Below, one piece after another: positions 986-16,291 of a DNA stretch of 64,000 nt. The translations under genes were made by a program, and so were the position numbers. The DNA comes from an uncultured Prevotellaceae bacterium (lineage in GTDB: Bacteria > Bacteroidota > Bacteroidia > Bacteroidales > Bacteroidaceae). Location of the stretch: assembly GCA_902775475.1 (NCBI GenBank), contig CACYME010000008.1:124001-188000 (forward strand), given 5' to 3'. The notes beneath the pieces are model-generated. The model saw nothing but the letters and a program-made list of their open reading frames with translations. It had not been told where the DNA came from and did no database searches. Within the stretch, counting starts at the first letter, position 1; the number at the start of each line of letters is the position of its first letter.

Positions 986-1019
986 GTGCGAAAACGCACA
1001 AAGTTGTGCGGATTCGCAC
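986..1019. promoter_or_regulatory. Paired palindromic operator upstream of the regulator gene
   Basis: Two 14-bp palindromes, GTGCGAAAACGCAC at 986-999 and GTGCGGATTCGCAC at 1006-1019, are 20 bp apart, about two helical turns. Near-identical pairs lie before the ABC exporter (3656-3689) and the TolC-HlyD operon (13397-13431). They are probably binding sites for the NtrC-type regulator encoded next, suggesting autoregulation. Here the downstream promoter looks like the usual Bacteroidetes type (TATCTTTG at 1091-1098), not sigma-54. Confidence 0.65.
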
Positions 1020-1123
1020 AAAATCAGGGTGTCGGGAGGCGATGGTCGCATTTTTCGGCTGAAAGGGCGGGCTATGTGAAGATTTTTCCTTATCTTTGCA
1101 GCAAACTTTTCGAACGAAGGAAA

Positions 1124-2491
1124 ATGGAAGAGAAGAAGAAGGGCAAGGTGCTCATCATCGACGACAACGAGGACATCCTCTTTGCGCTGAACCTGCTGCT
1201 AAAGCCGCTGGTGGACGACATCCGCGTGACCACACAGCCCGAACAGATAGACCGGTTCTACGACCTGCTGCACCCCGACGTGGTGCTGCTCGACATGAAC
1301 TTCCGCCGCGATGCCATCAGCGGCGAGGAGGGCTTCGAGTGGCTGGAGCACATCCTGCACCGCGACGCACAGGCGGTGGTCATCCTGATGACGGCCTACG
1401 CCGATGCCGACAAGGCGGTGCGGGCACTGAAGAGTGGTGCCACCGACTTCATCACCAAGCCGTGGGACAACTCCAAACTGTTGGCCACGCTCTTTGCGGG
1501 CATCGAGCTGAGTCGCGAGCGGCACAAGAACCGCCTGCTGGAGCAGCGCATGGAGGTGGCGGCATCGCCCTTCGGCGCTGCGGCGGCACCCACCATCATC
1601 GGCGAGAGTCCGGTGATGCAGCGCGTGTTGCAGACGGTGGCGCAGGTGGCTCCGACCGATGCCAATGTGCTCATCCTGGGCGAGAACGGCACGGGCAAGG
1701 ATGTCATCGCCCGACAGCTGTGCGCCCTCTCCACACGCGCGGCAAAGCCCTTCGTCAGCATCGACCTGGGCAGCGTGCCCGAACAGCTGTTCGAGAGCGA
1801 GCTCTTCGGCTACGAGAAAGGGGCGTTTACGGATGCGCGACAGGCAAAAGCCGGGCGAATGGAGACAGCCAGCGGAGGCACGCTCTTTCTCGACGAGATT
1901 GGCAACCTGCCCCTTTCTCTGCAGGCGAAGCTTTTGGCTTCGCTGGAGCGTCGCCAGATCTCGCGCCTTGGCAGCACGCAGACAACGCCCATCGACGTGC
2001 GCCTGCTCTGCGCCACCAATGCCGACATCCACGCCGAGGTCGGCGAGGGGCGCTTCCGCGAAGACCTGCTCTACCGCATCAACACCATCGAGCTCACCAT
2101 TCCCCCGCTGCGCGAGCGTGGCGAGGACATCATCCTGCTGGCCGAGCACTTCCTCAAGACCTACGCGCGCAAATATAATAAGGTGGTGACGACGCTCAAT
2201 CGCGATGCCCGTCAGCGGCTGCTGCGCCACACGTGGCCAGGCAATGTGCGCGAGCTGATGCATGCCGTGGAGCGCGCCGTGCTGTTGGCCAAGGGGCCGA
2301 CGCTCTGTGCCCAGGACTTCGTACTGAAAGAACCGACTCACCGAACGACTCAGACGCAGACGCTGAACCTGGAGCGGCTGGAACAGGAAGCCATCGAACG
2401 GGCCATGCAGATAGCGGGCGGCAACGTCACCCGTGCTGCTGAGCTATTAGGTATAACGAGGTTTGCACTCTACAGAAAGCTGAGCAAATGA
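1124..2491 (+). CDS. NtrC-type sigma-54-dependent response regulator
   Basis: 455-residue three-domain activator. The receiver domain (about 10-125) has the phospho-acceptor Asp57 in LLDMNF. The AAA+ domain has Walker A GENGTGKD from about 186, the sigma-54 contact loop as GAFTDA (233-238, Asp instead of the usual Gly) and Walker B GGTLFLDEIGNL. A Fis-type helix-turn-helix ends the protein (GGNVTRAAELLGITR). The ATG at 1124 is chosen because it follows the TATCTTTG promoter box and starts directly before the receiver domain. Its stop overlaps the kinase start (ATGA), so the two are cotranscribed and form a cognate pair. Likely targets are the exporter operons carrying the paired palindromes. 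Confidence 0.92.
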   Translation: MEEKKKGKVLIIDDNEDILFALNLLLKPLVDDIRVTTQPEQIDRFYDLLHPDVVLLDMNFRRDAISGEEGFEWLEHILHRDAQAVVILMTAYADADKAVRALKSGATDFITKPWDNSKLLATLFAGIELSRERHKNRLLEQRMEVAASPFGAAAAPTIIGESPVMQRVLQTVAQVAPTDANVLILGENGTGKDVIARQLCALSTRAAKPFVSIDLGSVPEQLFESELFGYEKGAFTDARQAKAGRMETASGGTLFLDEIGNLPLSLQAKLLASLERRQISRLGSTQTTPIDVRLLCATNADIHAEVGEGRFREDLLYRINTIELTIPPLRERGEDIILLAEHFLKTYARKYNKVVTTLNRDARQRLLRHTWPGNVRELMHAVERAVLLAKGPTLCAQDFVLKEPTHRTTQTQTLNLERLEQEAIERAMQIAGGNVTRAAELLGITRFALYRKLSK

Positions 2492-3651
2492 GAACATATC
2501 TCCTGTATATCGTTAGGCTCGTGGCCCTGATGGCATGTCTGGCCGTCAGCATACACGCCCGTCTGCTGTGGCCTTCCATCTCGCTGGGTGCAGTACTGCT
2601 GTGGCTATGCGCCTCGCTTTATAGCCGCACGAACCGTCTGCTCTATGCTTACCGCGAGACGGAGAAGGAGAACGAGCGGTTGCATGCACGGCTGGCTGAA
2701 GCCGAGCGCCAGTTGCAATACCTGCGACAGCTGACCGAGAACGTTGATACCGCCCTCTTCGTCTGCTCTACCGATGGGCGTATCGACTGGATGAACCATG
2801 CAGCGAAGAAAATAGCCCCCCCTTCTGCCCCCGAGGGGGCTACGATAGTCTCAACTACTGATAGCAAAACTATAGAAGCCCCCTCGGGGGCCGTAGGGGG
2901 GGCCTTTCTTCCTCCCCATATCCTCCAGGCCATTGCCGACCATGCCGAGGTGGTGGACGGGTGCGCCCTCTCCACGGTGCTGTTGCGTATTGACGGGCAG
3001 CGTCGCCTGGTAGTAGCGCTGAAGGACGTTTCGATGCTGATGCAGCGGCAGGAGATGGAGGCCTGGCAGCAGCTCATCCGCGTGCTCACCCACGAAATCA
3101 TGAACTCGCTGACGCCCATCATCTCCATCAGCGAGACGCTAAGTTCCTCCCCTTCGGGAGGAGGTCAGGAGGGGGCCGAAGCCTTTGCCGTCATCAACCG
3201 CCGCTGCCACTCCTTGCTCGACTTCGTAGAGAGTTACCGCCAGCTGACGCGCATCAAAACGCCTGTAAAGACAACCTTCCCCATCAACGAACTCTTGGAG
3301 CATATCACAGGACTCTACCCGGAAGTGAAGACACAAGGCACAGGGCAGTTGACGGCCGACCGCTCACAGCTGGAGCAGGTGCTCATCAACCTTGTGCGCA
3401 ATGCCTACGAGAGTGGAGCCACCGAGGTACTGCTCTCTGCTAACGGCGAGGGTGAAATCCGCGTCAAGGACAACGGCTGTGGCATGTCGCCCGACGTCAT
3501 CGACCATGCCTTTATCCCCTTCTTCACCACCAAGCCCTCCGGCACAGGCATCGGCCTCAGTCTCTGCCGTCAGATCATCCTGAAGCATGGCGGCACCATC
3601 CGCATGGAGAGCCAGCAGGGCAAAGGCACCACCTTCATCATCCAGCTGTAA
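2488..3651 (+). CDS. Membrane sensor histidine kinase, partner of the NtrC-type regulator
   Basis: 387 residues. Two N-terminal membrane helices (about 4-22 and 28-45) are followed by a coiled coil, a PAS-like region (about 80-175), a HisKA domain with the phospho-acceptor His202 in LTHEIMNSLTPI, and an ATPase domain (N box NLVRNAYESG, DNGCGM, GTGIGLSLC). Two palindromes are translated within it: residues about 110-139 (2815-2904), inside the PAS-like region, and about 219-229 (3143-3175, SSSPSGGGQEG), just after the phospho-helix. Both keep the frame, so the kinase may still work. Translationally coupled to the regulator by ATGA. Confidence 0.9.
   Translation: MRTYLLYIVRLVALMACLAVSIHARLLWPSISLGAVLLWLCASLYSRTNRLLYAYRETEKENERLHARLAEAERQLQYLRQLTENVDTALFVCSTDGRIDWMNHAAKKIAPPSAPEGATIVSTTDSKTIEAPSGAVGGAFLPPHILQAIADHAEVVDGCALSTVLLRIDGQRRLVVALKDVSMLMQRQEMEAWQQLIRVLTHEIMNSLTPIISISETLSSSPSGGGQEGAEAFAVINRRCHSLLDFVESYRQLTRIKTPVKTTFPINELLEHITGLYPEVKTQGTGQLTADRSQLEQVLINLVRNAYESGATEVLLSANGEGEIRVKDNGCGMSPDVIDHAFIPFFTTKPSGTGIGLSLCRQIILKHGGTIRMESQQGKGTTFIIQL
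2815..2904. repeat. Palindromic element translated in frame inside the kinase gene
   Basis: Imperfect inverted repeat with arms of about 35 bp built on GCCCCCGAGGGGGC, separated by a spacer containing AAAACTATAG. It encodes Ala-Pro-Pro-Ser-Ala-Pro-Glu-Gly ... Ala-Pro-Ser-Gly-Ala-Val-Gly-Gly. The same element lies in the permease gene (4946-5038) and in rsgA (34044-34135). It breaks an otherwise normal PAS-type stretch without shifting the frame. Confidence 0.8.
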
Positions 3652-3655
3652 AGGC

Positions 3656-3689
3656 GTGCTAATCCGCACACCATCGAGCGAATACGCAC
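3656..3689. promoter_or_regulatory. Paired palindromic operator upstream of the ABC exporter
   Basis: GTGCTAATCCGCAC (3656-3669) and GAGCGAATACGCAC (3676-3689), again 20 bp apart. The second ends 56 bp before the -24 box of a sigma-54 promoter, a normal place for enhancer sites of an NtrC-type activator. It starts right after the kinase stop codon. Confidence 0.7.
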
Positions 3690-3745
3690 GCTGACGCAAG
3701 CACATCGAAAAACGTATTTCTCACAGAATCAGCGCTTTCGCGTTT

Positions 3746-3760
3746 TGGCACAGTTGTTGC
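3746..3760 (+). promoter_or_regulatory. Sigma-54 promoter of the ABC exporter operon
   Basis: TGGCACAGTTGTTGC matches the -24/-12 consensus TGGCAC-N5-TTGC exactly. The predicted start near 3772 leaves a leader of about 24 nt before the ATG at 3796. The only NtrC-type activator gene in the window ends 1.3 kb upstream, and its suspected binding sites lie at 3656-3689. Confidence 0.8.
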
Positions 3761-3795
3761 CATCGTTAGGTTGTAACAATCTAAGAAGAAAAAGA

Positions 3796-6246
3796 ATGAA
3801 ACAAGCATTTCGCATCATCACCCGCATGAAGGGCTACACGGCGCTGTCGCTGCTGGGCCTTATCATCTCGCTCAGCGGCACCGTCATCATCAGCCGCTAC
3901 CTCTATCAGGAGTGGACCATCGACCACTTCATGCCGGCCCTCGACCGCACCTTCCTCTGCTGCGCGCAGATAGAAGGGGAAGCCGACTGGAGGCCCATGG
4001 AGACTTTCGACCCCAACCACGAGTCGCAATTTGTCTCGCCCGTCCTGAACCAGAGCGACGTGGAGTGCTGGACGAACATCCACCTGCGCGCCATGTATGC
4101 CGTCACGCCGGAGAAGGGCGAGACGTTCTATCCCCAAGCCCTCAGCGTGGACAGCGCCTTCACGCAGGTCTATCCATTAGAAGCGGTGGAAGGCACGCTG
4201 GAGCTGCGCGCCAAGGGTCAGTGCATGGTCAGCGAGGAGCTGGCTGCGCGGCTGTTTCCCGGCGAGAGTGCCGTGGGCAAGACCATCACCGTTGGCGACG
4301 GCGACGTGAACACCGTCGTGGGCGTGTTCCGTCAGCCCAGCACCAAGTCGAGCATCCGCTTCGACATTGCCGACTACGGCGACGAGGACTTCTACGCCCC
4401 ACAGAACAGTTTTACCATCGGAGTCGTCCGTCTGCGCGAAGGAGCCAGCGTCAGCGACTACAACAAGCGACAGCCCGAGCAGCGGTTAGCTATGTTCATG
4501 GACAGGCCCATACGCTATGGCCTGCAACCCTATACGCAGGAGCTCCAGAAGAATTTCTCCAAAGGCTATTGGGGTGAATATGCCTGCGTCGTTTCCACTG
4601 CCTCGGCTGCCCACCTGTGGATGCTGCTCTTCGTGGCCGTGCTGCTGCTTGGTGTGGGCCTGTTCAACTTCGTGAACCTCTTTGCCGTGATGCGCTCCCA
4701 CCGCCGCCACGAGCTGCACGTGCGCCGCCTGTTCGGCGCCTCGCGCTGGGATATCTTCGGACAGCTCTATGCCGAGACGTTCCTTGTGGCCGTGCTCACC
4801 ATGATTGGCGTTTGGACAGTCGTAGAGCTGGCTGAGCCGCTGCTCGCCACCTATTATCATATAGAGGTGATGCCGCAATGGCGGTTCGACGTGGTATTGA
4901 CGGCCATCGTAGTCTTCGGCTTGCCACTGATTACAAGCCTAACCCAAAGCCCCCCCTTCTGCCCCCGAGGGGGCTACAATAGACTTCTCTGCCGCCAAAA
5001 CTATAGTAGCCCCCTCGGGGGCAGAAGGGGGGGCTTTTGGGGTGAGGCTTTAGGAGTGGGTTGTCAGTTCTTCATCTCCCTCGCCCTGCTCACCGTCAGC
5101 ATCTATTTTATGCGGCAGCTGCACGTGATGCTAAGCGCCGACCCTGGCTTCCGCACCAAGGGCCTGCTCAACGCCGTCATCTATCCGCCATCGAACCGAG
5201 GGTCGTGGACACAGGGGGAATGGGAAGCCATGATGGAGAGGAAAAAAAGCCAGACGGAGATCGTGCGGCAGCGGCTACAGGCATTGCCCTACCTGAAAGG
5301 CATCGACGTGAATGAGGATTTCATCAACGGCAGCTTCCCCGTTGGGCTTGCTGACGGCAGCAGCATCGACATGCTGTATATGACGGGCGGGGCAGCACGC
5401 ATGTTCGGCCTGCAACTGGTGGAGGGCGTGCTGCCCGACGACAGCCTGTCGATGGAGGACTATGCCTGCGTGGCCAACGAGGCGGCCATCAAGGCATTAG
5501 GCATCAAGAACCGCGAGACCGACCTCGTGCAGTTTGCCGAACGCATTTTCTGGAGTAGCGAGACCGACCGCAACAGCAATCCACCCTACCGCATTGTCGG
5601 CGTGGTACGCGACTTCAACACGGGCCGTCAGTCGGAGCCCGTCAAGCCCCTGCTGTTGATGTTCGAGACGGGGCAGAAAGACTATCTGTTTGATGCCCGC
5701 CAGATGGAGGGGCATAACTACCTGCTCGACGTGGCCGAAGGGCACGAGGAGGATATCATCCGCGAACTGAAAGACCTCGAGATGGAGCTCTTTGGCACCA
5801 GCGAGCTGAAGTACCAGTGGGTGGAGGACCAGCGGCAGGAGCTCTACAAGGAGGACCAGCGCACGGCCCGCATCTTCGTCACCTTCTCGCTGCTGGCCAT
5901 CGCCGTGACGTGCCTCGGCGTGCTGGGCCTGATGATGTTCGACGTGCGCCGCCGCTTCCGCGAGATTGCCCTGCGCAAGGTGAACGGTGCCACCTTCCGC
6001 GACATCGCCCTGCTGCTCTCGCGTCGCTATCTCACGGTCTTCGCCATTGCCGCCGTGGCCTCGCTGCCCGTCAGCCTGCTCGTCATCCACCGGCTCATGG
6101 CCAGCTACACCATCCGCACTAGCTTCGCCTGGTGGATTCCGCTCGTGAGCATCGCCGTCATCCTCACCCTCTGTGCCCTCACGCTGTGGTATCAGGTGTG
6201 GAAGGCCACGAGAATTAAACCGTATCAAGTACTCAAAGAGAACTAA
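3796..6246 (+). CDS. MacB/FtsX-type ABC transporter permease
   Basis: 816 residues with the duplicated layout of large Bacteroidetes ABC permeases: an N-terminal helix (about 13-35), an extracytoplasmic domain, a membrane bundle (about 270-380), then a second extracytoplasmic domain and three closing helices with the FtsX signature (EIALRKVNGATFRDIALLLSR). Such permeases act as mechanotransmission exporters with an ATPase, an adaptor and TolC. The ATG at 3796 is chosen because a TTG 51 bp upstream would lie inside the sigma-54 promoter. Residues about 384-414 are encoded by a GC-rich palindrome placed in the linker between two membrane segments. The ATPase gene follows after 27 bp. Confidence 0.88.
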   Translation: MKQAFRIITRMKGYTALSLLGLIISLSGTVIISRYLYQEWTIDHFMPALDRTFLCCAQIEGEADWRPMETFDPNHESQFVSPVLNQSDVECWTNIHLRAMYAVTPEKGETFYPQALSVDSAFTQVYPLEAVEGTLELRAKGQCMVSEELAARLFPGESAVGKTITVGDGDVNTVVGVFRQPSTKSSIRFDIADYGDEDFYAPQNSFTIGVVRLREGASVSDYNKRQPEQRLAMFMDRPIRYGLQPYTQELQKNFSKGYWGEYACVVSTASAAHLWMLLFVAVLLLGVGLFNFVNLFAVMRSHRRHELHVRRLFGASRWDIFGQLYAETFLVAVLTMIGVWTVVELAEPLLATYYHIEVMPQWRFDVVLTAIVVFGLPLITSLTQSPPFCPRGGYNRLLCRQNYSSPLGGRRGGFWGEALGVGCQFFISLALLTVSIYFMRQLHVMLSADPGFRTKGLLNAVIYPPSNRGSWTQGEWEAMMERKKSQTEIVRQRLQALPYLKGIDVNEDFINGSFPVGLADGSSIDMLYMTGGAARMFGLQLVEGVLPDDSLSMEDYACVANEAAIKALGIKNRETDLVQFAERIFWSSETDRNSNPPYRIVGVVRDFNTGRQSEPVKPLLLMFETGQKDYLFDARQMEGHNYLLDVAEGHEEDIIRELKDLEMELFGTSELKYQWVEDQRQELYKEDQRTARIFVTFSLLAIAVTCLGVLGLMMFDVRRRFREIALRKVNGATFRDIALLLSRRYLTVFAIAAVASLPVSLLVIHRLMASYTIRTSFAWWIPLVSIAVILTLCALTLWYQVWKATRIKPYQVLKEN
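4946..5038. repeat. Palindromic element translated in frame inside the permease gene
   Basis: Same family as 2815-2904: arms with GCCCCCGAGGGGGC and a spacer ending CAAAACTATAG. Here it is read in another phase than in the kinase and rsgA, giving Pro-Pro-Phe-Cys-Pro-Arg-Gly-Gly, yet contains no stop. It falls in a loop between predicted membrane helices. Confidence 0.8.
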
Positions 6247-6273
6247 ACTACGAATTAAACGAATAGCAAAAAT

Positions 6274-6948
<675 letters not shown>

Positions 6949-7019
6949 TGTTCTCATCGGATAAAAATAATACGGCAAGGCATTCGTCAGTCTGATGAAC
7001 GCCCCCATAGGGAAAAGTA

Positions 7020-7101
7020 GGTTGGCAGCGGACGCTGCCAACATTGTTCGCGCCCGCCGCCAATATTGGCAGCGGGCGCTGCCAATATCGTCCCCGCCCG
7101 C
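7020..7101. repeat. Cluster of short palindromes downstream of the ABC ATPase
   Basis: Contains the palindrome TTGGCAGCGGACGCTGCCAA (about 7022-7041) and a second, ATTGGCAGCGGGCGCTGCCAAT, with linking CGCCCGC segments that pair with the same arms. It lies between the end of the exporter operon and the promoter of the next gene. Could act as a transcript end or be a REP-like repeat; there is no U-tract. Confidence 0.6.
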
Positions 7102-7279
7102 TGCCTTCACAAAAACGGCCTTCTTTTTCCCTCAAAGGTGCCGCTATATCCCTCAAAACCGGCACTTTTTTCCTTCAAGCAGGCACATTCTCTTCTGAAG
7201 AAAGCATTTTTTAACGGAGCATCCAGCCTATATGTCATCATTAGTTAGTACATTTGCAGCCGACAAACAACCATACGCT

Positions 7280-7990
7280 ATGACAATAAGGCAAACCATC
7301 ATCGTTGCGCTTCTGCTGTTAGCCCAGCAGGGGATGGCACAAAACGAGGAAAGGCAGCAAACTGCGAAGTGGTATATCGGTGGGGCACTTATGCTGTTGG
7401 CCCCAGACATTGAACACTACGGCAAGGACTGGGTATGTTACGACCCGCCTTCGCCGATGGTATGGTTTGGGTCTTCATGGCTGAACGGTGGGATGATGGG
7501 CGACCACCACGCGCAGTTCCCGCTGCGCAGCGGCGTATTCCAGAAGATTGACTGCGGGTTCACCATCTTTCAATTGTCCAGAAGTCTCTACCGAAGTAAC
7601 GTCGGCATCACCGCTGCTTTGCAAATCGAAGGAAGTAGTTACGACGTTGCCCGCAACTACAGCGTGGAGAAAGATGGTTACCACGTGGCTTTTGTTCCAG
7701 AAGACGAAGAGCATCAGCGCGACCGGCTGGACTATACCGCGCTACGCATCCCGTTGCAAATCGGCGTCCAGACCAGCAACCACCTGTTCTCGCTGCAGAC
7801 AGGCGTCGGACTGTTGTACACCTCTCGCCCCGGTGTCCAGTGGTTGGCGACCGCTGCTTTCGGTCCACTTACCATCAACTATTCGCAGAACATCACGCCA
7901 CTCTTCAAACTTCCCGACGGCACGAAAGCCTATCCCTTGTCGCTCTCCATCGGTGTAGACATCTGGAATATTTTGTGCCGAAGGTGGTGA
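7280..7990 (+). CDS. Probable outer-membrane beta-barrel protein, unknown function
   Basis: 236 residues with a signal peptide (MTIRQTIIVALLLLAQQGMAQ) and then alternating amphipathic strands rich in Tyr, Trp and Gly, typical of small Bacteroidetes outer-membrane proteins. The start at 7280 is preferred over an in-frame ATG at 7232 because a TACATTTG promoter box lies between them (about 7247-7254) and because it begins the signal peptide. No family is recognised. It stands alone between the exporter operon and the ATPase gene. Confidence 0.7.
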   Translation: MTIRQTIIVALLLLAQQGMAQNEERQQTAKWYIGGALMLLAPDIEHYGKDWVCYDPPSPMVWFGSSWLNGGMMGDHHAQFPLRSGVFQKIDCGFTIFQLSRSLYRSNVGITAALQIEGSSYDVARNYSVEKDGYHVAFVPEDEEHQRDRLDYTALRIPLQIGVQTSNHLFSLQTGVGLLYTSRPGVQWLATAAFGPLTINYSQNITPLFKLPDGTKAYPLSLSIGVDIWNILCRRW

Positions 7991-8004
7991 AGGAGGTGGG
8001 AAAC

Positions 8005-8083
8005 ATTTGGGGATTCCGTACAATTTCGGCGGAATAAATTTGGGGATTCCGTACAATTTCGACGGAATAAATTTGGGGATTCC
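8005..8083. repeat. 33-bp tandem repeat upstream of the AAA ATPase gene
   Basis: Two full units (8005-8037 and 8038-8070, one base different) and a 13-bp partial third unit, each starting ATTTGGGGATTCCG. The last partial unit supplies TTTG at 8072-8075, a possible -33 element for the TATTTTTG box of the next gene, so the repeat number could affect promoter spacing or binding sites. Confidence 0.8.
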
Positions 8084-8133
8084 AACAAAAATGCTTATTT
8101 TTGCACCCTCATAACTGCATAAGAGAATAAAAT

Positions 8134-9480
8134 ATGGAATCGAATACAAAGATATTCAGACGCAAGATCTACGATGCAATGCTCCAGTGGAAACAGGAAC
8201 GTGATGGCAAGACAGCCCTGCTCATCAAAGGAGCAAGGCGAGTGGGTAAATCTACTATCGCCGAGGAATTTGCACGCAAAGAGTACGAAAGTCATATCGT
8301 CGTGGATTTCGCCGATGCACCGTCGGAACTTTGGGAGGCTGTGGAACATATTTCAGACCGGAACTATTTTTTCACACAGCTCCAGTTCATCTACAACGTA
8401 AGGCTGATAGAACGCCACTCTGTCATCATCTTCGACGAGATACAGAAATGTCCCGCTGCACGGCAAGCCATCAAATATCTGGTGAAAGACCATCGCTATG
8501 ACTACATCGAAACAGGCTCGCTGCTCTCAATAAAGAAAAACACTCAGGGCATTGTCATCCCGAGTGAAGAAACTCGACTTACCATGTACCCTATGGACTA
8601 CGAGGAGTTCCGCTGGGCTATGGGTGACACGGCGACCGTTCCTTTGCTGCACGAGTTCTACGAGAAGCGTCTTCCGCTTCAACAAGCTTTTCGTAAAGCC
8701 ATGCGCGACTTCCGCCTCTATATGCTTATCGGAGGAATGCCACAGGCGGTCAATGAGTATCTGAGTACCAATAACCTTAGTCTCGTCGATTCGGTAAAGA
8801 GAGAAATCATAGAACTTTACTTTGACGACTTCCTGAAAATTGACCCGTCGGGCAAAGCGTCACGCCTATTTAGCGGAATACCTTCGGAGTTGTCGAAAAA
8901 TGCCTCGCGCTATCAAGCCACAAGTGTGCTCGGCCGAAGTGAAAACAGGGACACGATGGACGAGCTGTTGAGAAATATGGAGGATAGCCTCACCGTCAAC
9001 TTTGCCCACCATGCCAACGACCCGCATGTAGGGATGCCTATGCATACCGACTATGAACAGTATAAGATGTATGTTGCCGATACAGGGTTGTTCGTCACTC
9101 TCGCTTTCTGGGACAAAGACATAACAGAGAACGTCATCTATCAAAAGTTGCTTTCCGACAAACTGTCTGCCAACCTTGGATATGTCTATGAGAATATTGT
9201 TTCTCAAATGTTGACTGCTACAGGTAATAAGCTGTTTTACCACACCTGGCTATCAGCAACCTCCAATCACAACTATGAGGTGGACTTCCTGCTCTCACGA
9301 GGAGCTAAGCTGTGGCCTCTGGAAGTCAAGTCGTCAGGCTATAAAACCCACAAGTCACTCGACGAGTTCTGTAAGAAATTCTCCGACCGCATCAGCGACC
9401 GCTTTCTTGTATACACCAAGGACTTCGAGAAGGATGGTGAGACAACGTTGCTTCCTGTACTAATGACCATGTTCTTGTGA
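8134..9480 (+). CDS. AAA-family ATPase with DUF4143 domain
   Basis: 448 residues. N-terminal ATPase with Walker A KGARRVGKST (about 30-39) and Walker B IIFDEIQKCP, then the DUF4143 part, whose C-terminal region (YEVDFLLSRG...LWPLEVKSS) resembles a PD-(D/E)XK nuclease fold. These orphan ATPases are abundant in Bacteroidetes, often in multiple copies; their role is unknown. It has its own promoter (TATTTTTG near 8095) and is monocistronic. Confidence 0.88.
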   Translation: MESNTKIFRRKIYDAMLQWKQERDGKTALLIKGARRVGKSTIAEEFARKEYESHIVVDFADAPSELWEAVEHISDRNYFFTQLQFIYNVRLIERHSVIIFDEIQKCPAARQAIKYLVKDHRYDYIETGSLLSIKKNTQGIVIPSEETRLTMYPMDYEEFRWAMGDTATVPLLHEFYEKRLPLQQAFRKAMRDFRLYMLIGGMPQAVNEYLSTNNLSLVDSVKREIIELYFDDFLKIDPSGKASRLFSGIPSELSKNASRYQATSVLGRSENRDTMDELLRNMEDSLTVNFAHHANDPHVGMPMHTDYEQYKMYVADTGLFVTLAFWDKDITENVIYQKLLSDKLSANLGYVYENIVSQMLTATGNKLFYHTWLSATSNHNYEVDFLLSRGAKLWPLEVKSSGYKTHKSLDEFCKKFSDRISDRFLVYTKDFEKDGETTLLPVLMTMFL

Positions 9481-9550
9481 TGGACGCGATGGAAAAATAA
9501 AATGAACGATTGTCCGTTTCGTGTGTATGCTGTCAAAACAAAGCAAAACA

Positions 9551-10731
9551 ATGAACAGCAAAAGCATGAAACGGTTTTTTATGACATTGCTGGTGGGCCT
9601 CACGATGATGACCGGAGCCACAAGTTGGACAGCATGTACAACTACTGGAACGACTTCGTGACCCAGCACCCTAAGGACGATGCTGCATGGCGCAATCTCT
9701 TCGAGATATGCTCTACCCAGGAGTTTAGACTGAGATGCAAGAACTGGGAGGCTGGCATACAGCACTTCAAGGACGAGATGATGCCGCTGTTGGAACGGAT
9801 CAAGAATGCCCTTCCTGGCAGTTATACCGCTTACTATTGCGAATATGAAGGTATGCTCGCCACGACGACCGACAGGAGAGAACTCACTGCGGATTCTGCC
9901 ATCGTCCTGCTGCCCAAGGATGCTCCTGCGGGTGATTACGAATTGTGGACGCAATACCTGATTCCCAAACGTGACACAGTGAGGATGGCCAACGTGCTGA
10001 CCCAATACTACGAGAGCGGGCAGTATCCCGAGGAGTTGTTGCAGTACCACTTCAACGAACTGCAAGGCATGGACGAAGGCGGTGTCTATATCGCTCCCCA
10101 TCCGGGTGAAATGGTCGGCAAACTCATCCTGCAGCATGTGTTGGGCGTTCACAAGGATAAGATTCTCTACGACGAGGATGCCGCCATGATGCCTAAGTAT
10201 GTAAAAGATGTATTTGAGCACATTGGCATCCCCTTCAACGATGACGTATGGAATCAGTTGTGGTCTATGTGGCAGGATAAGACACTGACAGCCATCATGC
10301 GCTACATCTTCGATCACTCCAAGCGTCCTGTCTATCTATCGGCTCACGATATGTGGCAATACATTATAGGGCAAGGCTTGCCTGACGAACTTAAGGCCTG
10401 CCTCTACAACGAGGGGCTGACCATGCGCTACTCCACTAAGCCTTACGACAACAGGGCCGTGAAGCGTCGCAACATTGAGCAGCGCTACCGCCTGGAGTAT
10501 CTGCGTATGCGTTTCCATCCTGTGATGAAGAACACACAGCGTTTCTCGGGTTCGGCCGAGGGCGACGCCTACGCCATGAACTATATGAGGCTGCTGCGCG
10601 ACCAACTGCCCTACTACAAGCAGCACAACAAGGAGCGCTATCAGTGGCTCAGCGACATCTTCAGCGATGTCATCAGCCAGTTGGAGAAGAAGAACTACGA
10701 TGTGGATGAATTCAATGGCTATCTGAAATGA
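9551..10731 (+). CDS. Secreted protein of unknown function, apparently frameshifted after the signal peptide
   Basis: The long frame (from about 9630 to 10731) has no signal of its own and would need an implausible N-terminus from an ATG at 9502. In the neighbouring frame an ATG at 9551 or 9566 starts a good signal peptide, MKRFFMTLLVGLTMMTGA. Joining the two needs one extra base near 9615-9635, so either the gene lost a base or the sequence has an error. The mature part (about 370 residues, TPR-like helices, KLDSMYNYWNDF onward) is not recognised. Its stop overlaps the ATG of the sigma-factor gene (ATGA at 10728), suggesting cotranscription. Confidence 0.6.
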
Positions 10732-10779
10732 GCATCTTTCATCTGAAACCTCTGCGCCAACTCACGGGCGGCGGCAGAC

Positions 10780-10815
10780 AAAGCCCCCCTTGCATCCCCC
10801 GAGGGGGACAAGGCT
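10780..10815. repeat. Short palindrome at the 5' end of the sigma-factor gene
   Basis: CCTTG-CAT-CCCCCGAGGGGG-A-CAAGG with a flanking AAAGCCCCCC resembles one arm of the long coding palindromes. It lies exactly where the reading frame from the ATG at 10728 must change to enter the sigma-factor frame. Confidence 0.65.
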
Positions 10816-10824
10816 TTCGAGGAG

Positions 10825-11307
10825 TTGTACCGCCGCTATGCCCGAAGGCTGAAGGGTTTCTTCTTCCTTCAGTTAGGTGGTGACGAGGAACTGGCTGCCG
10901 ACGCCACGCACGACGTTTTCCTGCGTGCCTACGAGGCCCGAAGCCGTTATCAGGAGGGACGCAGTGTCAGCACCTGGCTCTTCACCATCGCCTACAACAT
11001 CTGTCGCAACCACTACCGCAGCAATGCCTACGAGGCACAGCTGTTGGCCACCCTCGATGCCGAACCCATCAGCGAACAGCAGATAGAAGTGCAGCTCGAC
11101 CAATCCACACTCGACGAAGCCTTAGCGCAGGTGCTCGCCGAACTGCCCGCACCCTTGCACCAACTCTTCTCGCTCCACTATCAGGAGGAGCTGACCATCC
11201 CTCAGGTGGCCGAGATTGTCGGCATCCCCGAGGGCACCGTCAAGTCGCGCCTCCACAAGACCATGAACATCATCCGCAAAAAACTGAATAAGTATGAAAA
11301 TAAGTAA
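10825..11307 (+). CDS. ECF-type sigma-70 factor with disrupted N-terminus
   Basis: The intact frame gives 160 residues: region 2 (DATHDVFLRAYEARSRYQ...WLFTIAYNICRNHYR) and region 4 (LPAPLHQLFSLHYQEELT...GIPEGTVKSRLHK). No ATG or GTG starts this frame; the first candidate is a TTG at 10825, already inside region 2. The natural start is probably the ATG at 10728 (MSIFHLKPLRQLTGG), overlapping the previous stop, but that frame is one base off and the GC-rich palindrome lies between. So the gene is either inactivated, started at the TTG, or misassembled. A membrane protein gene overlaps its 3' end by 14 bp. Confidence 0.75.
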   Translation: MYRRYARRLKGFFFLQLGGDEELAADATHDVFLRAYEARSRYQEGRSVSTWLFTIAYNICRNHYRSNAYEAQLLATLDAEPISEQQIEVQLDQSTLDEALAQVLAELPAPLHQLFSLHYQEELTIPQVAEIVGIPEGTVKSRLHKTMNIIRKKLNKYENK

Positions 11308-11722
11308 CGAACAGATTATCCAGTCGGCCCGCCGTCAGCGCCAGGCCGTTGACAGTCAGATGAGCGTTGCCCCGTGGCAGCCACGTCGCCGTCAGGGCCG
11401 CTCCATTGCAGCCATCATCGCCATCGCCGCCAGCCTCGTCAGCTTCATCGCCGGTTATGGCATCCGGGGGAAAGTGTCGCAGCCCGAAGCCCAGCCGTTG
11501 GCACAAAGCATCGTGGTGCAGCACGACACGATTATGCGAGTAGAGACCGTCCATGACACCATCTATCAGACGTGCGTCGTCACCCGATACGAGAAACCCC
11601 TCATAGCCCAGCAGACCGCCGAGCCGCAGCCATCAACCCCCGACCAGCAGCTGTCCGCAGAAGAAATGGCCTGCTCCATGCTCTGCGACGACATCCCTTA
11701 CGAGCTGTTGGCTACTCCATAA
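11294..11722 (+). CDS. Single-span membrane protein, probable anti-sigma partner
   Basis: 142 residues: a basic cytoplasmic N-terminus (MKISNEQIIQSARRQRQA), one membrane helix (about 38-56, IAAIIAIAASLVSFIAGY), and a Pro/Gln-rich extracytoplasmic tail. It overlaps the sigma-factor gene by 14 bp. Position and topology suggest an anti-sigma factor or a sigma-controlled membrane protein, but no known anti-sigma domain is visible. Confidence 0.65.
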   Translation: MKISNEQIIQSARRQRQAVDSQMSVAPWQPRRRQGRSIAAIIAIAASLVSFIAGYGIRGKVSQPEAQPLAQSIVVQHDTIMRVETVHDTIYQTCVVTRYEKPLIAQQTAEPQPSTPDQQLSAEEMACSMLCDDIPYELLATP

Positions 11723-11822
11723 TGCAAAATATGTCGCGCACCGCCATCTTTTTTCTGCAAAAGGCACAAATATCAGAAAAAAAATGCGTAACTTTGTCGG
11801 CGGATTCTAAAACGATGTAAAT

Positions 11823-12056
11823 ATGGCAAACGTAGCAATGGCACCTGCAGAGGGGCAGATATTGGTAGACATCGAGGACATGTCAATGCTGAAGGACATC
11901 AAGAAGGCCATCAGCATGGTCAAGGGTGTTGGGAAAATCACCATTCCGCGCCGCAAGCGCATGTCCGCTTACGAGCGTTCACTGCGCGACCTCGACGAGG
12001 GACGCGTCTACGAGGCAAAAGATGTGGATGATTTGTTTAAGCAATGCCTTGGATAA
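11823..12056 (+). CDS. RelB/DinJ-type antitoxin
   Basis: 77 residues. The C-terminal tail LDEGRVYEAKDVDDLFKQC is typical of Bacteroidetes antitoxins paired with YafQ toxins; the N-terminal half would be the DNA-binding and dimer part. Promoter box TAACTTTG lies near 11788. The toxin gene starts 4 bp after its stop. Such antitoxins usually repress their own operon together with the toxin. Confidence 0.8.
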   Translation: MANVAMAPAEGQILVDIEDMSMLKDIKKAISMVKGVGKITIPRRKRMSAYERSLRDLDEGRVYEAKDVDDLFKQCLG

Positions 12057-12060
12057 CCCC

Positions 12061-12351
12061 ATGTACAAGATTAAGTTTACTTGCGAATTCAAACGCCAGA
12101 TGAAGTTATGTAATCGGCGCGGTTATGACATGGAGAAATTGCAAACTGCCATCCGCATCCTTTCCACTGAGGGCAAACTTCCAGCAGAATATCAACCGCA
12201 CGTTCTTCACGGTGACCGCCGCGGCCAGTGGGAGTGCCACATCCAGCCCAACTGGCTGCTCATCTGGGAGCAGCACGACACAGAGCTCGTCCTCATCATG
12301 CTCAACACGGGCACGCACTCGGATCTGTTCGACAAAAAGTATAAGAAATAA
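12061..12351 (+). CDS. YafQ-family mRNA interferase toxin
   Basis: 96 residues of RelE/ParE fold: MYKIKFTCEFKRQMKLCNRR, a central LHGDRRGQWECHIQPNWLLIW, and the C-terminal LNTGTHSDLF that carries the conserved His region of YafQ toxins. YafQ toxins cleave mRNA on the ribosome. The ATG at 12061 is chosen by alignment to the usual N-terminus and the 4-bp gap to the antitoxin. After it, 12352-12580 holds no gene that I can support. Confidence 0.85.
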   Translation: MYKIKFTCEFKRQMKLCNRRGYDMEKLQTAIRILSTEGKLPAEYQPHVLHGDRRGQWECHIQPNWLLIWEQHDTELVLIMLNTGTHSDLFDKKYKK

Positions 12352-12580
12352 CCAAATATGATAGGATAGAACGACATTACACGACATAAGGTTGCGTTGA
12401 CTTTTTGATTCTTGCTCCAGAAATTTCGCCAAAATTATCTCGTAAGAAGAAAGAAGTTGATGCTCGCGTTGAGGCGCGGGCTGAGACTTGTATCTACGAG
12501 AACGGCGTTTGGCGATGCCTCTGGAGCAGATGCGGAATCAGTACCGCGCTACTTTTTTCATTAACTAAACATCGAGACAC

Positions 12581-13168
12581 ATGACAGAACCATTCAACAC
12601 CTACACAATCGACCTTGACCTGCAGTACGTTCATGAGCTGTGCAAGCGCGAGGGCGAAATCGTCAGCTACCAGCGTGGCCAGCTGCTGGAGCGTGAAGGT
12701 GAGCCCGCCCACTGGATAGGCTTCGTGGAGCAAGGCTGTTTCAAGTATTGCAAGCGCGACTTCAACGGCAATGACGAACACACCATCGGCTTTGTCTTCG
12801 AGGGAGAGTTTGTGTGCGACTATCCCAACTGCCTCACAGCGAAGCCGTCGACCGTTTCCATTGAGGCCGTCATGCCGTGCCGAGTGTCCCTGTTTCCTGG
12901 TGAGCGGCTGGAGGCACTCTATCGCAGCAGCCATGAGGCTGAGCGCATGGGACGGTATATCATGCAGAACCTTTTTCTTCAGACTTACAGCCGGATGAGC
13001 AGTCTCTATTGTACCGACGGCCGCCAGCGCTACGAGCTGTTGCTGCAGCGCTGCCCACAAATCGTGCAGCAGCTGCCGCTGAAGGACATCGCGTCGTTCC
13101 TCAACATCACGCCGACCTATCTCAGCAAGATTCGCCGCGAAATCACCTTTTCTGCCGGCAAAGCCTGA
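12581..13168 (+). CDS. Crp/Fnr-family transcription regulator
   Basis: 195 residues. N-terminal cyclic-nucleotide-binding-like barrel (about 20-120; REGEPAHWIGFVEQGCFKYC) and a C-terminal winged helix (about 145-190; LPLKDIASFLNITPTYLSKIRREI). The glycine-rich phosphate-binding cassette of true Crp is not obvious, so cAMP binding is doubtful. Bacteroidetes carry many such orphan regulators with unknown ligands. It stands alone, 300 bp before the TolC-HlyD operon. Confidence 0.85.
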   Translation: MTEPFNTYTIDLDLQYVHELCKREGEIVSYQRGQLLEREGEPAHWIGFVEQGCFKYCKRDFNGNDEHTIGFVFEGEFVCDYPNCLTAKPSTVSIEAVMPCRVSLFPGERLEALYRSSHEAERMGRYIMQNLFLQTYSRMSSLYCTDGRQRYELLLQRCPQIVQQLPLKDIASFLNITPTYLSKIRREITFSAGKA

Positions 13169-13251
13169 GCACAGGCTCAAACTATTTTGAGAAATGCTCC
13201 GCCAACGGCTGAATTATACTTTCCTGTTTCTCTTTTCTCGCCATTTATGCC

Positions 13252-13339
13252 TAACTTTGCACCACGTAAAGTTAGTAAATAATAACTCAAACGAGAGTAA
13301 ACCCGGGTATTCTGGAGGCCGCAGCGATGCGCCCTCCAG
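13252..13339 (+). promoter_or_regulatory. Promoter and GNRA-capped hairpin upstream of the TolC gene
   Basis: A TAACTTTG box at 13252-13259 would start a transcript near 13265. At 13312-13339 that transcript can form a hairpin: CTGGAGG pairs with CCTCCAG, then C-GCA with TGC-G, closed by a GCGA tetraloop. No U-tract follows, so it does not look like a terminator. It could be part of a 5' leader or a small RNA. The rest of 13169-13481 contains only the operators. Confidence 0.4.
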
Positions 13340-13396
13340 TATTATTGTGGGTATTTTAGGCTTCCTAACATGTGACGCTGCGCAATATTAGCAGAC

Positions 13397-13431
13397 GTGC
13401 GGTTGCGCACGGATAGCGTGCGATTTAGCAC
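13397..13431. promoter_or_regulatory. Paired palindromic operator upstream of the TolC-HlyD operon
   Basis: GTGCGGTTGCGCAC (13397-13410) and GTGCGATTTAGCAC (13418-13431), 21 bp apart, match the pairs at 986-1019 and 3656-3689. This links the operon to the NtrC-type regulator. A TGGCAC follows at 13487-13492 but has no proper -12 box and lies inside the coding start. Confidence 0.65.
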
Positions 13432-13481
13432 GGACGAAAACAAGTACTATTGACGAAGTGTTTTGTGAATCAACGGATTAG

Positions 13482-14951
13482 GTGTTTGGCACGGTACGAT
13501 TAATTATACTCTCACTTTTCTGTTTGTCCATAGAGGCAGCAGGCCAGACGGACTCCCTGCGGCTGACGCTCAGCGAAGCTATCGCATTGGCACAGCAGCA
13601 GTCGAGCGATGCGCTGGCGGCGCGCCACTCGTTGGAGGCGGCAGAGTGGAGCTACCGCTACCACAAAGCCAACTACCTACCGTCGGTGACGCTGAGCAGC
13701 TCGCCCTCGCTCAACCGGCAGCTGAACAGCATCACCCAGCCCGACGGCACCAATATCTTTGTGCGACAGAACCAGCTGAGCACCGACCTCGCGCTGAGCA
13801 TCAGCCAGAACGTGACGCTCACGGGCGGCACCCTGTTCGTGCGCAACAACCTACAGCGCCTCGACGAGTTTGAACAGCGCACGCACGGCTACAGCAGCGT
13901 GCCCTTCTCCATCGGCTACCAGCAGAACCTCTTCGGCCATAACAGCCTCCGTTGGGCACGGCGCACAGAGCCGCTACGCCACAGCATCGCCCGCAAGCAG
14001 TATGCCGAGACGATGGAGCTGGTGGCCTCGCGTGCGAGCACCTATTTCTTTCTATTGGCCTCGGCGCAGACCAACTTGGAGATAGCACAGCAGAACTTCG
14101 CCGTGAGCGACACGCTGCTCAGCTACGCCCGCCGCCGCTATGAGCGCGGCAGCATCACCGAGAACGAGATGCTTCAGTTAGAGGTGGGCAAGCTGACAGA
14201 GGAGACAAACCGACTGAACGCCGAGGCGGAGGTGGAGGATGCCATGCAGACGCTGCGCTCCTATCTCGGCATCAAGGAGGAGGTGCCGCTGCAGGTGGTG
14301 CCCGACACGCTCATCAGCAACGACGTAGTGGATGCCGACGAAGCACTGGCGCTGGCCTTGGCCAACAACCCCGACCCTGAGCAGCTGCGGCTGAACGTCA
14401 TGGAGAGCGAGAGCGCACTATCGGCGGCCAAGGCGAACCGTGGTCTGAAGGCCGACCTCTACATGCAGTTCGGACTGTCGCAGAAGGGCACAACGCTCAG
14501 CGAAGCCTACACAAAGCCGCTGAACCAGCAGTATGTGAGCATGACAGTGTCGCTGCCGCTGCTCGACTGGGGGCGCGGACGGGGACAGGTACGCGTGGCC
14601 AAATCGCGATTAGAGCTGACGCAGACGCAGAGCGAACAGGCCATGCAAGACTTCCGGCTGAACGTGCAGAAGATGGTGCGGCAGTACAACCTGCAGGCCC
14701 ATCGCGTGAAGATAGCCCACCGTACGCGAGAGACGGCCCTGCGCCGCTACGAGGTGGCGCGCTGGCTCTATCTGCAAGGGCGCACCTCGCTGTTGGAGTT
14801 CAACGCAAGCGTCAACGAGAAGGACAATGCTCAGCGCGCCTTCATCGCCGCCCTGCAAACCTATTGGAGCCTGTATTATGGACTGAGAAGTCTGACAGCC
14901 TCACCCCCGACCCCTCTCCAAAGGGAGAGGGGAGTATATACCTTAAAGTAG
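13482..14951 (+). CDS. TolC-family outer-membrane efflux protein
   Basis: 489 residues with a GTG start and a short signal peptide (RLIILSLFCLSIEAAGQ). Two TolC-type repeats follow: long helices (e.g. LTLSEAIALAQQQSSDALAA, ESALSAAKANRG) with interposed beta segments (LSLSISQN-type strands). It would form the trimeric outer-membrane channel of a tripartite exporter. The final 20 or so residues (LTASPPTPLQRERG) are encoded by a dispersed Bacteroidetes repeat at 14899-14937, so the native C-terminus was probably replaced. The adaptor gene follows after 5 bp. Shared operators suggest it serves the ABC exporter at 3796-6948. Confidence 0.88.
   Translation: MFGTVRLIILSLFCLSIEAAGQTDSLRLTLSEAIALAQQQSSDALAARHSLEAAEWSYRYHKANYLPSVTLSSSPSLNRQLNSITQPDGTNIFVRQNQLSTDLALSISQNVTLTGGTLFVRNNLQRLDEFEQRTHGYSSVPFSIGYQQNLFGHNSLRWARRTEPLRHSIARKQYAETMELVASRASTYFFLLASAQTNLEIAQQNFAVSDTLLSYARRRYERGSITENEMLQLEVGKLTEETNRLNAEAEVEDAMQTLRSYLGIKEEVPLQVVPDTLISNDVVDADEALALALANNPDPEQLRLNVMESESALSAAKANRGLKADLYMQFGLSQKGTTLSEAYTKPLNQQYVSMTVSLPLLDWGRGRGQVRVAKSRLELTQTQSEQAMQDFRLNVQKMVRQYNLQAHRVKIAHRTRETALRRYEVARWLYLQGRTSLLEFNASVNEKDNAQRAFIAALQTYWSLYYGLRSLTASPPTPLQRERGVYTLK
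14899..14937. repeat. Dispersed palindromic repeat at the end of the TolC gene
   Basis: ACCCCCGACCCCTCTCC-AAA-GGGAGAGGGG is an inverted repeat of a type I have seen often in Bacteroidetes genomes (coding LTPDPSPKGEG in the other frame). It forms the last codons of the TolC gene. A second palindrome, CCCTCCCT...AGGGGGAGGG, lies in the first codons of the adaptor gene (about 14995-15026). Confidence 0.65.
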
Positions 14952-14956
14952 AGAAT

Positions 14957-16291
14957 ATGGAAAAGAATAAAAACAGCCAGTTACATTTTGATTCCCTCCC
15001 TCGTAAGAATGCAGCAGGGGGAGGGTCTGCTATGGACATACCCTTGCCCCCACGTCCGTGGTACGTGAAGTACCGCAAGTACATCGTAGGCGGTGCGGTG
15101 CTTGCCGCGCTGATGATTTATGCCGTAGTGTTGCAACTGGGGCCGCGCACGCTGAAAGTGACCATTGGCGACGAGCAGATGGCTGTGGTCACCGAGGGAG
15201 AGTTCCTGGAGTATATCGATGTGAACGGCGTGGTCAGCCCCGCCACCAGCATGCGGGTGAACGCTCAAGAAGGCGGCACCGTGGAACGCATCTGCTGCCG
15301 CAATGGCGATGTGGTGCGGCGCGGCGACACCATCCTTGTCCTCTCGAACCCAAAGGTATTAGAAGAGATAGCTGCCGAGCGGCAGACCTACGAACTACAG
15401 CAGATGCAGCATCGCCAGCAGCTTATCGAGATGCAGCAGAAGAGCATCACCCTGCGCAGTCAGGCCTTGCAGGCCAATTTTGAACTGAAGAAGATGGCGC
15501 AAGACTATGAGTTGGCAGAGGAAGAGGCTCGGATGGGCGTGAAAAGCCAGGCGCAACTGAAGGTGGCACGCGATGAATACGACTACAACCGCCAGCGCAC
15601 GCTGCTGAACATAGAGAGCCTGCACCAAGACTCGGTGCTGAACATCATAGGCCGTCAGCTCATCGAGCAACAGATGGCGATGGAGGCCCAGCGACTGGCC
15701 AACAGCATCAGCCGCCGCGACGCCCTCGCCGTCCTGGCCCCTACCGACGGGCAAATCAGCAACCTCAACGCCAGCATCGGGGCACAGGTGTCAGCAGGCG
15801 AGCAGGTGGGCGAGATAGGCGTGCTGACCGACTACATGGTGACGGCCCGACTGAACGAATACTACATCGACCACGTGCAGACCGGCCTCCCAGCCACCGC
15901 CACGCTGAAGGGGCAGCGCCATGCCTTCGAGGTCAGCCGCACCACCCCCCAGGTGCAGGACCACAGCTTCGCGGTGGAGCTAAAAGCCGCCCCATTGTCT
16001 TCCCAAGAAGAAACAGAGGAATGGCGAGTAGGCCAGACCCTGCGCCTTCAAATAGAACTCGGCAAACCCGAACGCCGACTCATCATCCCACGAGGCAGCT
16101 TCTATGCGCAGACGGGTGGACAGTGGGTGATGCTGGTGGACGAGACAGGACACAGTGCACATCGCATCCCCATCAAACTGGGCCGACAGAACACGGAGCA
16201 TTACGAAGTCCTCAGTGGCCTACATGCTGGCGACCGCATCCTCATCAGCGGCTACGAGGCATTTGGCGATGCCGAGGTCGTCAAGTGGTGA
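14957..16291 (+). CDS. HlyD/MacA-type periplasmic adaptor protein
   Basis: 444 residues. A cytoplasmic N-terminus, one membrane helix (about 45-63, YIVGGAVLAALMIYAVVLQL), a lipoyl-like half (VNAQEGGTVERICCRNGDVV), a long coiled-coil hairpin (about 150-240), the second lipoyl half (LAPTDGQISNLNASIGAQVSAG) and C-terminal barrels. It bridges an inner-membrane transporter and TolC. The ATG at 14957 is 5 bp after the TolC stop. Residues about 13-24 (SLPRKNAAGGGS) are coded by a palindrome. No inner-membrane pump is encoded in this operon, so the permease/ATPase at 3796-6948 is the best partner. Confidence 0.88.
   Translation: MEKNKNSQLHFDSLPRKNAAGGGSAMDIPLPPRPWYVKYRKYIVGGAVLAALMIYAVVLQLGPRTLKVTIGDEQMAVVTEGEFLEYIDVNGVVSPATSMRVNAQEGGTVERICCRNGDVVRRGDTILVLSNPKVLEEIAAERQTYELQQMQHRQQLIEMQQKSITLRSQALQANFELKKMAQDYELAEEEARMGVKSQAQLKVARDEYDYNRQRTLLNIESLHQDSVLNIIGRQLIEQQMAMEAQRLANSISRRDALAVLAPTDGQISNLNASIGAQVSAGEQVGEIGVLTDYMVTARLNEYYIDHVQTGLPATATLKGQRHAFEVSRTTPQVQDHSFAVELKAAPLSSQEETEEWRVGQTLRLQIELGKPERRLIIPRGSFYAQTGGQWVMLVDETGHSAHRIPIKLGRQNTEHYEVLSGLHAGDRILISGYEAFGDAEVVKW

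What the first reader, a model, noticed from the sequence alone, without database searches (positions are those of the whole stretch)
986..13431. One paired operator links a two-component system, an ABC exporter and a distant TolC-HlyD operon
The palindrome GTGCGnnnnCGCAC occurs as a double site three times: 986-999/1006-1019, 3656-3669/3676-3689 and 13397-13410/13418-13431. Spacing within the pairs is 20, 20 and 21 bp. The first pair precedes the NtrC-type regulator and kinase, the second the permease-ATPase operon, the third the TolC-adaptor operon 6.5 kb away. I noticed no other such pair. This predicts one signal-controlled tripartite exporter with its genes in two places.
Basis: partly seen in the sequence, partly recalled or inferred. 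Interest (0 to 1): 0.82.

Follow-up and report, generated by a model that had tools for sequence, protein, structure and literature searches.

The report
Paired operators unite a split exporter
A gut-type bacterium appears to keep the genes of one membrane export pump in two places and to tie them together with the same double DNA switch, read by one signal-sensing regulator; computed evidence from relatives supports this, but no binding or expression experiment has been done.

Summary
The three pairs are real and beyond chance (0 of 400 simulated windows had three), though only 3 of 6 palindromes match GTGCGN4CGCAC exactly. Among close relatives, window included, the pair precedes the regulator in 13 of 15, the permease in 14 of 14, and TolC in 10 of 10 where detached but 0 of 2 where it follows the ATPase. 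All 8 exact pairs in 393 order-level genomes, the window's included, lie beside such regulator or exporter genes. An aromatic recognition-helix residue goes with this operator (25 of 30 loci; others 3 of 89). Caution: here the tolC promoter lacks 44 bp, with the -12 box and the relatives' start codon, so TolC may be uncoupled in this strain, or the assembly is wrong. The mechanism is known in kind (sigma-54 two-component control); the split, operator-linked exporter regulon is a new variant. Signal, cargo and autoregulation sign are unknown.

The parts
986..1019 (.). operator pair 1, GTGCGN4CGCAC twice, spacing 20, upstream of regulator
   Evidence: present in 13 of 15 close relatives, window included
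1091..1098 (+). TATCTTTG, looks like the -7 box of a Bacteroidota housekeeping promoter (motif recalled); conserved in relatives
1124..2491 (+). NtrC-type response regulator, 455 aa: receiver, sigma-54 AAA+ (GAFTDA loop), HTH_8
2488..3651 (+). histidine kinase, 387 aa, two N-terminal TM-like helices with a very short loop
3656..3689 (.). operator pair 2, spacing 20, one mismatch in each palindrome, upstream of permease
   Evidence: 14 of 14 relatives with the permease start, window included
3727..3739 (+). AATCAGCGCTTTC, IHF-like element (consensus recalled) at a fixed place before the -24 box
3746..3760 (+). sigma-54 promoter TGGCACAGTTGTTGC, 57 bp after pair 2
3796..6246 (+). FtsX/MacB-type duplicated permease, 816 aa
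6274..6948 (+). ABC ATPase, 224 aa
13397..13431 (.). operator pair 3, spacing 21, upstream of tolC; identical to that of relative G337
13468..13480 (+). AATCAACGGATTA, IHF-like element, same place relative to -24
13487..13492 (+). -24 element TGGCAC of the tolC promoter; no -12 element follows here, 44 bp missing relative to relatives
13482..14951 (+). TolC-family outer membrane protein, 489 aa; GTG start (the relatives' ATG lies in the missing stretch)
14957..16291 (+). HlyD/DarC-like periplasmic adaptor, 444 aa

Best explanation
A membrane histidine kinase without an obvious periplasmic sensor domain phosphorylates an NtrC-type regulator. Two regulator dimers bind side by side (sites two helical turns apart) at about -117 to -83 of sigma-54 promoters and, with DNA bending helped by an IHF-like site just before the -24 box, drive sigma-54 RNA polymerase. 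This switches on the permease-ATPase operon and, where it is detached, the TolC-adaptor operon, so that both halves of one tripartite ABC exporter appear together. The third pair, before the regulator's housekeeping-type promoter, gives autoregulation of unknown sign. Shown by sequence: pairs, promoters, spacing, conservation, near-exclusive regulon. Inferred: binding, phosphorylation, bending, start-site numbering, that the parts form one pump, and its role (most likely removal of an envelope-active peptide or toxic compound).
For: Pairs non-random and nearly unique in the genome. Sigma-54-like promoters at a fixed distance after the pair: 55-58 bp in 34 of 36 pair-promoter couples, 64-65 bp in 2 (only couples with a site 40-85 bp away were counted); spacing 20 or 21 in 52 of 53 pairs in the loci chosen. 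Pair before regulator, permease and detached TolC in 13/15, 14/14 and 10/10, absent where TolC follows the ATPase (0/2) (window included). 8 of 8 exact pairs in 393 order-level genomes beside the same gene kinds, one of them the window's own. In G058 a further pair, on another contig, stands before a permease-ATPase-TolC-HlyD operon. Regulators with an aromatic helix residue form one supported clade of 21 rows in a quick tree, plus one distant Bacillota row. rpoN is present; GAFTDA loop present.
Against: No experiment. In this assembly the tolC promoter lacks its -12 box and the relatives' start codon, so coupling may be lost in this strain, or the assembly is wrong there. The pair before the regulator is missing in 2 of 15 (G271, unrelated upstream DNA; G269, TATCTTTG box kept but no pair), and no sigma-54 site was found before the regulator. 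G083 has 3 pair matches with 2 mismatches in a repetitive reading frame. The G058 distant operon lies near another paralogous regulator, so its controller is not certain. Relatives share ancestry, so counts are not independent.
Confidence: 0.85

Rival explanations
1. In this strain the link is lost: the pairs control the regulator and permease only, the TolC-operon pair is a relic behind a damaged promoter, and another TolC serves the pump. (Not exclusive with the best explanation for the family as a whole.)
For: 44 bp missing at the tolC promoter here; a second TolC of 37% identity exists in the genome.
Against: In 9 of 9 other detached cases the pair is present and a sigma-54-like site follows it. 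The tolC and adaptor frames are open and the operator is intact. The second TolC stands behind its own, different operator pair.
Confidence: 0.3
2. The palindromes belong to another transcription factor (for example a repressor) and not to the neighbouring regulator.
For: No binding data; the site before the regulator lies at a housekeeping-type promoter.
Against: Presence of the GTGCG pair follows the recognition helix of the neighbouring regulator: aromatic 25 of 30 loci, others 3 of 89; fixed distance to sigma-54 promoters; 14 same-genus genomes without this regulator at E <= 1e-110 have no pair with 2 or fewer mismatches at spacing 20 or 21.
Confidence: 0.06
3. Chance or repeat-derived palindromes.
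For: Single degenerate palindromes are common.
Against: 0 of 400 simulations; conserved cores amid diverged flanks; 8 of 8 exact pairs in 393 genomes beside the same gene kinds.
Confidence: 0.01

Closest known systems
NtrC-family sigma-54 two-component activation (NtrC, ZraR, AtoC, GlrR/QseF type)
   Same: Receiver-AAA+-HTH_8 regulator, kinase partner, paired palindromic upstream sites, TGGCAC-N5-TTGC promoter
   Different: Targets are exporter modules; the regulator is below the cut-off of each of the 25 NCBIfam models shown (of 83 matched); four spellings of the operator were found in no paper of the library
Sigma-54 control of FtsX-type ABC permeases predicted in Bacteroidia (PMC12316311; 12 passages seen)
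   Same: That paper predicts sigma-54 regulation of COG0577 antimicrobial-peptide permeases in Bacteroidia
   Different: The passages seen name no activator, operator or split-operon linkage
MacAB-TolC / ADOP / darobactin (DarBCD) exporters
   Same: FtsX-fold permease, separate ATPase nearest DarD, adaptor nearest DarC (and above the cut-off of the general RND_mfp adaptor subfamily), TolC channel
   Different: ADOP, MacB and Dar models match below their curated cut-offs; the genes lie in two operons
BceRS-BceAB type detoxification modules (recalled)
   Same: Kinase with two TM helices and almost no outer loop beside an FtsX-type ABC transporter
   Different: Regulator is sigma-54 NtrC type, not OmpR type; TolC and adaptor present; sensing by the transporter untested

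Membership tests
Group I sigma-54 enhancer-binding response regulator | receiver + Sigma54_activat + Fis-type HTH | tested here: met
   Pfam Response_reg, Sigma54_activat, HTH_8 above cut-offs
Group I sigma-54 enhancer-binding response regulator | sigma-54 contact loop (GAFTGA or variant) | tested here: met
   GAFTDA at residue 233
Group I sigma-54 enhancer-binding response regulator | -24/-12 promoter downstream of tandem upstream sites | tested here: met
   permease: exact TGGCACAGTTGTTGC 57 bp after pair; tolC in this assembly: -24 only; regulator: none found
Group I sigma-54 enhancer-binding response regulator | phosphorylation-dependent activation | not testable with these tools
   needs biochemistry
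MacB-type tripartite exporter | MacB_PCD/FtsX permease, ABC ATPase, adaptor, TolC channel encoded | tested here: met
   genes in two operons; that they form one pump is inferred
ADOP duplicated permease (TIGR03434) | score above curated cut-off | tested here: not met
   171.5 bits against 622.3
Darobactin exporter DarBCD | equivalog cut-offs | tested here: not met
   DarD 285.7/375, DarC 126.5/450, DarB 49.6/700
Efflux periplasmic adaptor subfamily RND_mfp (TIGR01730) | score above curated cut-off | tested here: met
   108.8 bits against 94.9; a general adaptor model
Bce-type module | kinase with two TM helices and tiny outer loop | tested here: met
   hydropathy peaks 4-22 and 26-44
Bce-type module | OmpR-type regulator | tested here: not met
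   NtrC type

The most novel reading that the evidence does not exclude
Bacteroidota carry a radiation of sigma-54 exporter switches in which each paralogous regulator has its own paired operator (GTGCG, GTTCG, GTCCG or GTAAAG half-sites) read by a diverged recognition helix, so that exporter modules can break off and scatter over the chromosome while a copied operator pair keeps them under the same signal.
Probability: 0.5. Interest if true: 0.65.

Novelty: new variant of a known kind. Interest (0 to 1): 0.52.

Why it matters
It gives a regulator, an operator and promoters for a class of Bacteroidota exporters whose sigma-54 control has been predicted in bulk (PMC12316311, passages seen). The operator finds the missing parts of a split pump from sequence alone, and the spread of helix and operator types is a natural data set for how enhancer-binding proteins keep paralogous circuits apart.

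Tried and rejected
Chance and repeat origin: rejected by simulation, genome scans and conservation. A sigma-54 promoter before the regulator: none with the scan used; a conserved TANCTTTG box instead. Sigma-54 promoter of tolC in the window: only the -24 part. Extra pairs: a similar 3-mismatch hit recurs in 10 of the 35 genomes searched and lies, in the window's genome (the only one looked at), inside an open reading frame; three 2-mismatch hits in G083 lie in a repetitive reading frame. The contexts of the other single 3-mismatch hits, in G004 and G032 among others, were not examined. L164 (Bacillota MAG): same operator with an exact sigma-54 site before a LamB/YcsF-like gene (5-oxoprolinase type; named from recall), so the operator itself is not exporter-specific outside Bacteroidota.

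Helix-operator link: one search looked at 119 of 121 loci (2 dropped, regulator cut) within 8 kb of the regulator. 75 of 119 had no pair of any pattern tested, among them 19 of 19 loci with threonine in the helix place. GTTCG was hit in 9 loci, GTCCG in 5, GTAAAG in 4 (all proline, 4 of 24), and the five control patterns together in 4, so only the GTGCG link is strong; the other classes rest on single cases. The 5 aromatic misses include short contigs and one locus whose sequence partly reads N. The aromatic rows are almost wholly one clade, so the Fisher value (2e-9 for 11 of 15 against 3 of 89, window clade left out) overstates independence. L164 sits on a long branch of uncertain place.

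Papers: searches (listings with abstract starts); only PMC12316311 bears on it (12 passages). PMC6615313 was searched for six terms with no hit.

Full report
Observation. The three pairs exist at the coordinates given, with spacing 20, 20 and 21. Three of the six palindromes match GTGCGN4CGCAC exactly and three have one mismatch. Three pairs with 2 or fewer mismatches occur in the window; 400 Markov windows gave a mean of 0.0. In the 3.73 Mb genome a scan at spacing 20 with up to 3 mismatches finds only the regulator and permease pairs (repeated in 29); at spacing 21 it finds the TolC pair and one 3-mismatch hit inside an open reading frame.

Genes. The regulator (1124-2491) has receiver, sigma-54 AAA+ and HTH_8 domains; the kinase follows, then an FtsX/MacB_PCD permease and an ATPase; the distant operon holds a TolC-family protein and an adaptor. 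The regulator has GAFTDA, and the kinase has two TM-like peaks about three residues apart. rpoN is present. The nearest named exporter models (ADOP, MacB, DarB, DarC, DarD) match below their cut-offs; the adaptor passes the general RND_mfp model.

Promoters. An exact sigma-54 site, TGGCACAGTTGTTGC, lies 57 bp after the permease pair. Over 36 pair-promoter couples in chosen, partly redundant loci the distance was 57 (24), 56 (5), 55 (4), 58 (1), 64 (1) and 65 (1); only sites 40-85 bp after a pair were looked for. An IHF-like element (WATCARNNNNTTR, consensus recalled) was sought in the 45 bp before TGG: 20 of 38 promoters have it with at most one mismatch (2.0 expected), 8 of 38 exactly (0.11 expected), and in 31 of 38 the best match begins 19 bp before TGG. 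These 38 are related and hand-picked, so the figure is a guide. The regulator's own pair stands before a conserved TANCTTTG box.

Relatives. The regulator is sporadic: 48 of 398 same-genus genomes have a match at E <= 1e-110. Thirteen genomes (window included) have it at 90% identity or more, and two loci of a named collection (L088, L089) at 89-90%. Pair before the regulator: 13 of 15; of the two misses, G271 has unrelated upstream DNA and G269 keeps the TATCTTTG box without a pair. Pair before the permease: 14 of 14 with that start on hand. Pair before TolC: 10 of 10 where TolC is detached (about 1 to 13 kb away, divergent, or on another contig) and 0 of 2 (G336, G140) where TolC follows the ATPase within about 15 bp; TolC was not found in G031 and G269, and L088 ends before it. 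This is a natural test: an own operator goes with detachment. It is small, and the genomes are related.

Specificity. In 35 same-genus genomes (21 with a regulator at E <= 1e-110, 14 without), spacing 20 and up to 3 mismatches gave 27 places: 26 at the regulator, permease or TolC gene, and one 3-mismatch hit in G032, which lacks the regulator (gene contexts). Spacing 21 gave 31 places: 12 at TolC, 10 a recurring 3-mismatch hit, 4 in one repetitive G083 reading frame, and 5 single 3-mismatch hits (one in G004, without the regulator). No genome without the regulator had a pair with 2 or fewer mismatches. In 393 genomes drawn from the order, 5 had an exact pair, 8 pairs in all including the window's own; each stands beside this regulator type or a MacB-like permease or ATPase gene, though in four loci (L261, L263, L265, L266) the only evidence is a weak permease match (20-22% identity). 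In family f88, G485 has four pairs on three contigs before such genes, and in G058 a pair on another contig precedes permease-ATPase-TolC-HlyD, though another paralogous regulator lies a few kb away. So operator-linked scattering has probably happened more than once.

Operator types. Regulators with an aromatic residue after the helix [TS]R form one clade of 21 rows (SH-aLRT 99, quick tree), plus a distant Bacillota row on a long branch. GTGCG pairs: 25 of 30 loci with that residue and 3 of 89 others; of those three, one (L057) is the distant operon of G058 and one (L137) fits GTCCG better. Some paralogues stand near other pairs with GTTCG, GTCCG or GTAAAG half-sites, but most loci (75 of 119) showed no pair of any pattern tested, and the five control patterns scored in 4 loci, so these other classes are suggestive only. 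The second such regulator of this genome has a GTCC-type pair and a sigma-54-like site before its TolC operon.

The caution. Against eight relatives with a detached TolC the window lacks a stretch between the -24 element and the signal peptide of tolC: 44 bp in each of six measured. The -12 box, the presumed transcription start and the relatives' ATG lie in it. From 13369 to 13494 the window is identical to G337; downstream it resembles G271. Either this strain has lost the promoter or the assembly is chimeric there. I describe this only.

Conclusion. Signal, cargo and the sign of autoregulation are unknown.

Noticed in passing
window 2828-2890, 4962-5021, 34060-34119 (also 10796-10807): A palindromic element (CCCCCGAGGGGG arms about 50 bp apart, 7 core matches, 0.01 expected) lies inside the open frames of the kinase and permease genes; the kinases of L042 and L177 lack the insert, those of L169 and L173 have similar ones. 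The third copy also overlaps an open frame. It looks like a mobile palindrome tolerated inside coding genes.
   Followed up: partly
window 13487-13500: 44 bp missing at the tolC promoter relative to relatives, at a junction between G337-identical and G271-like sequence.
   Followed up: partly
L061 (own genome C26:30000-49900), 3265-3420: Second NtrC-type exporter system of the same genome with a GTCC-type operator pair and a sigma-54-like site before TolC.
   Followed up: partly
L164 8192-8346: Bacillota MAG with a distant NtrC-type regulator, phenylalanine helix, GTGCG pair and exact sigma-54 site before a LamB/YcsF-like gene (name recalled).
   Followed up: partly
L171, L173, L176, L178: Several relatives carry two tandem copies of the permease gene.
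   Followed up: no
window 7232-13180: The stretch between ATPase and tolC holds a DUF4143 ATPase, an ECF sigma factor and a RelE-type toxin gene; the gap between ATPase and tolC varies among relatives.
   Followed up: no
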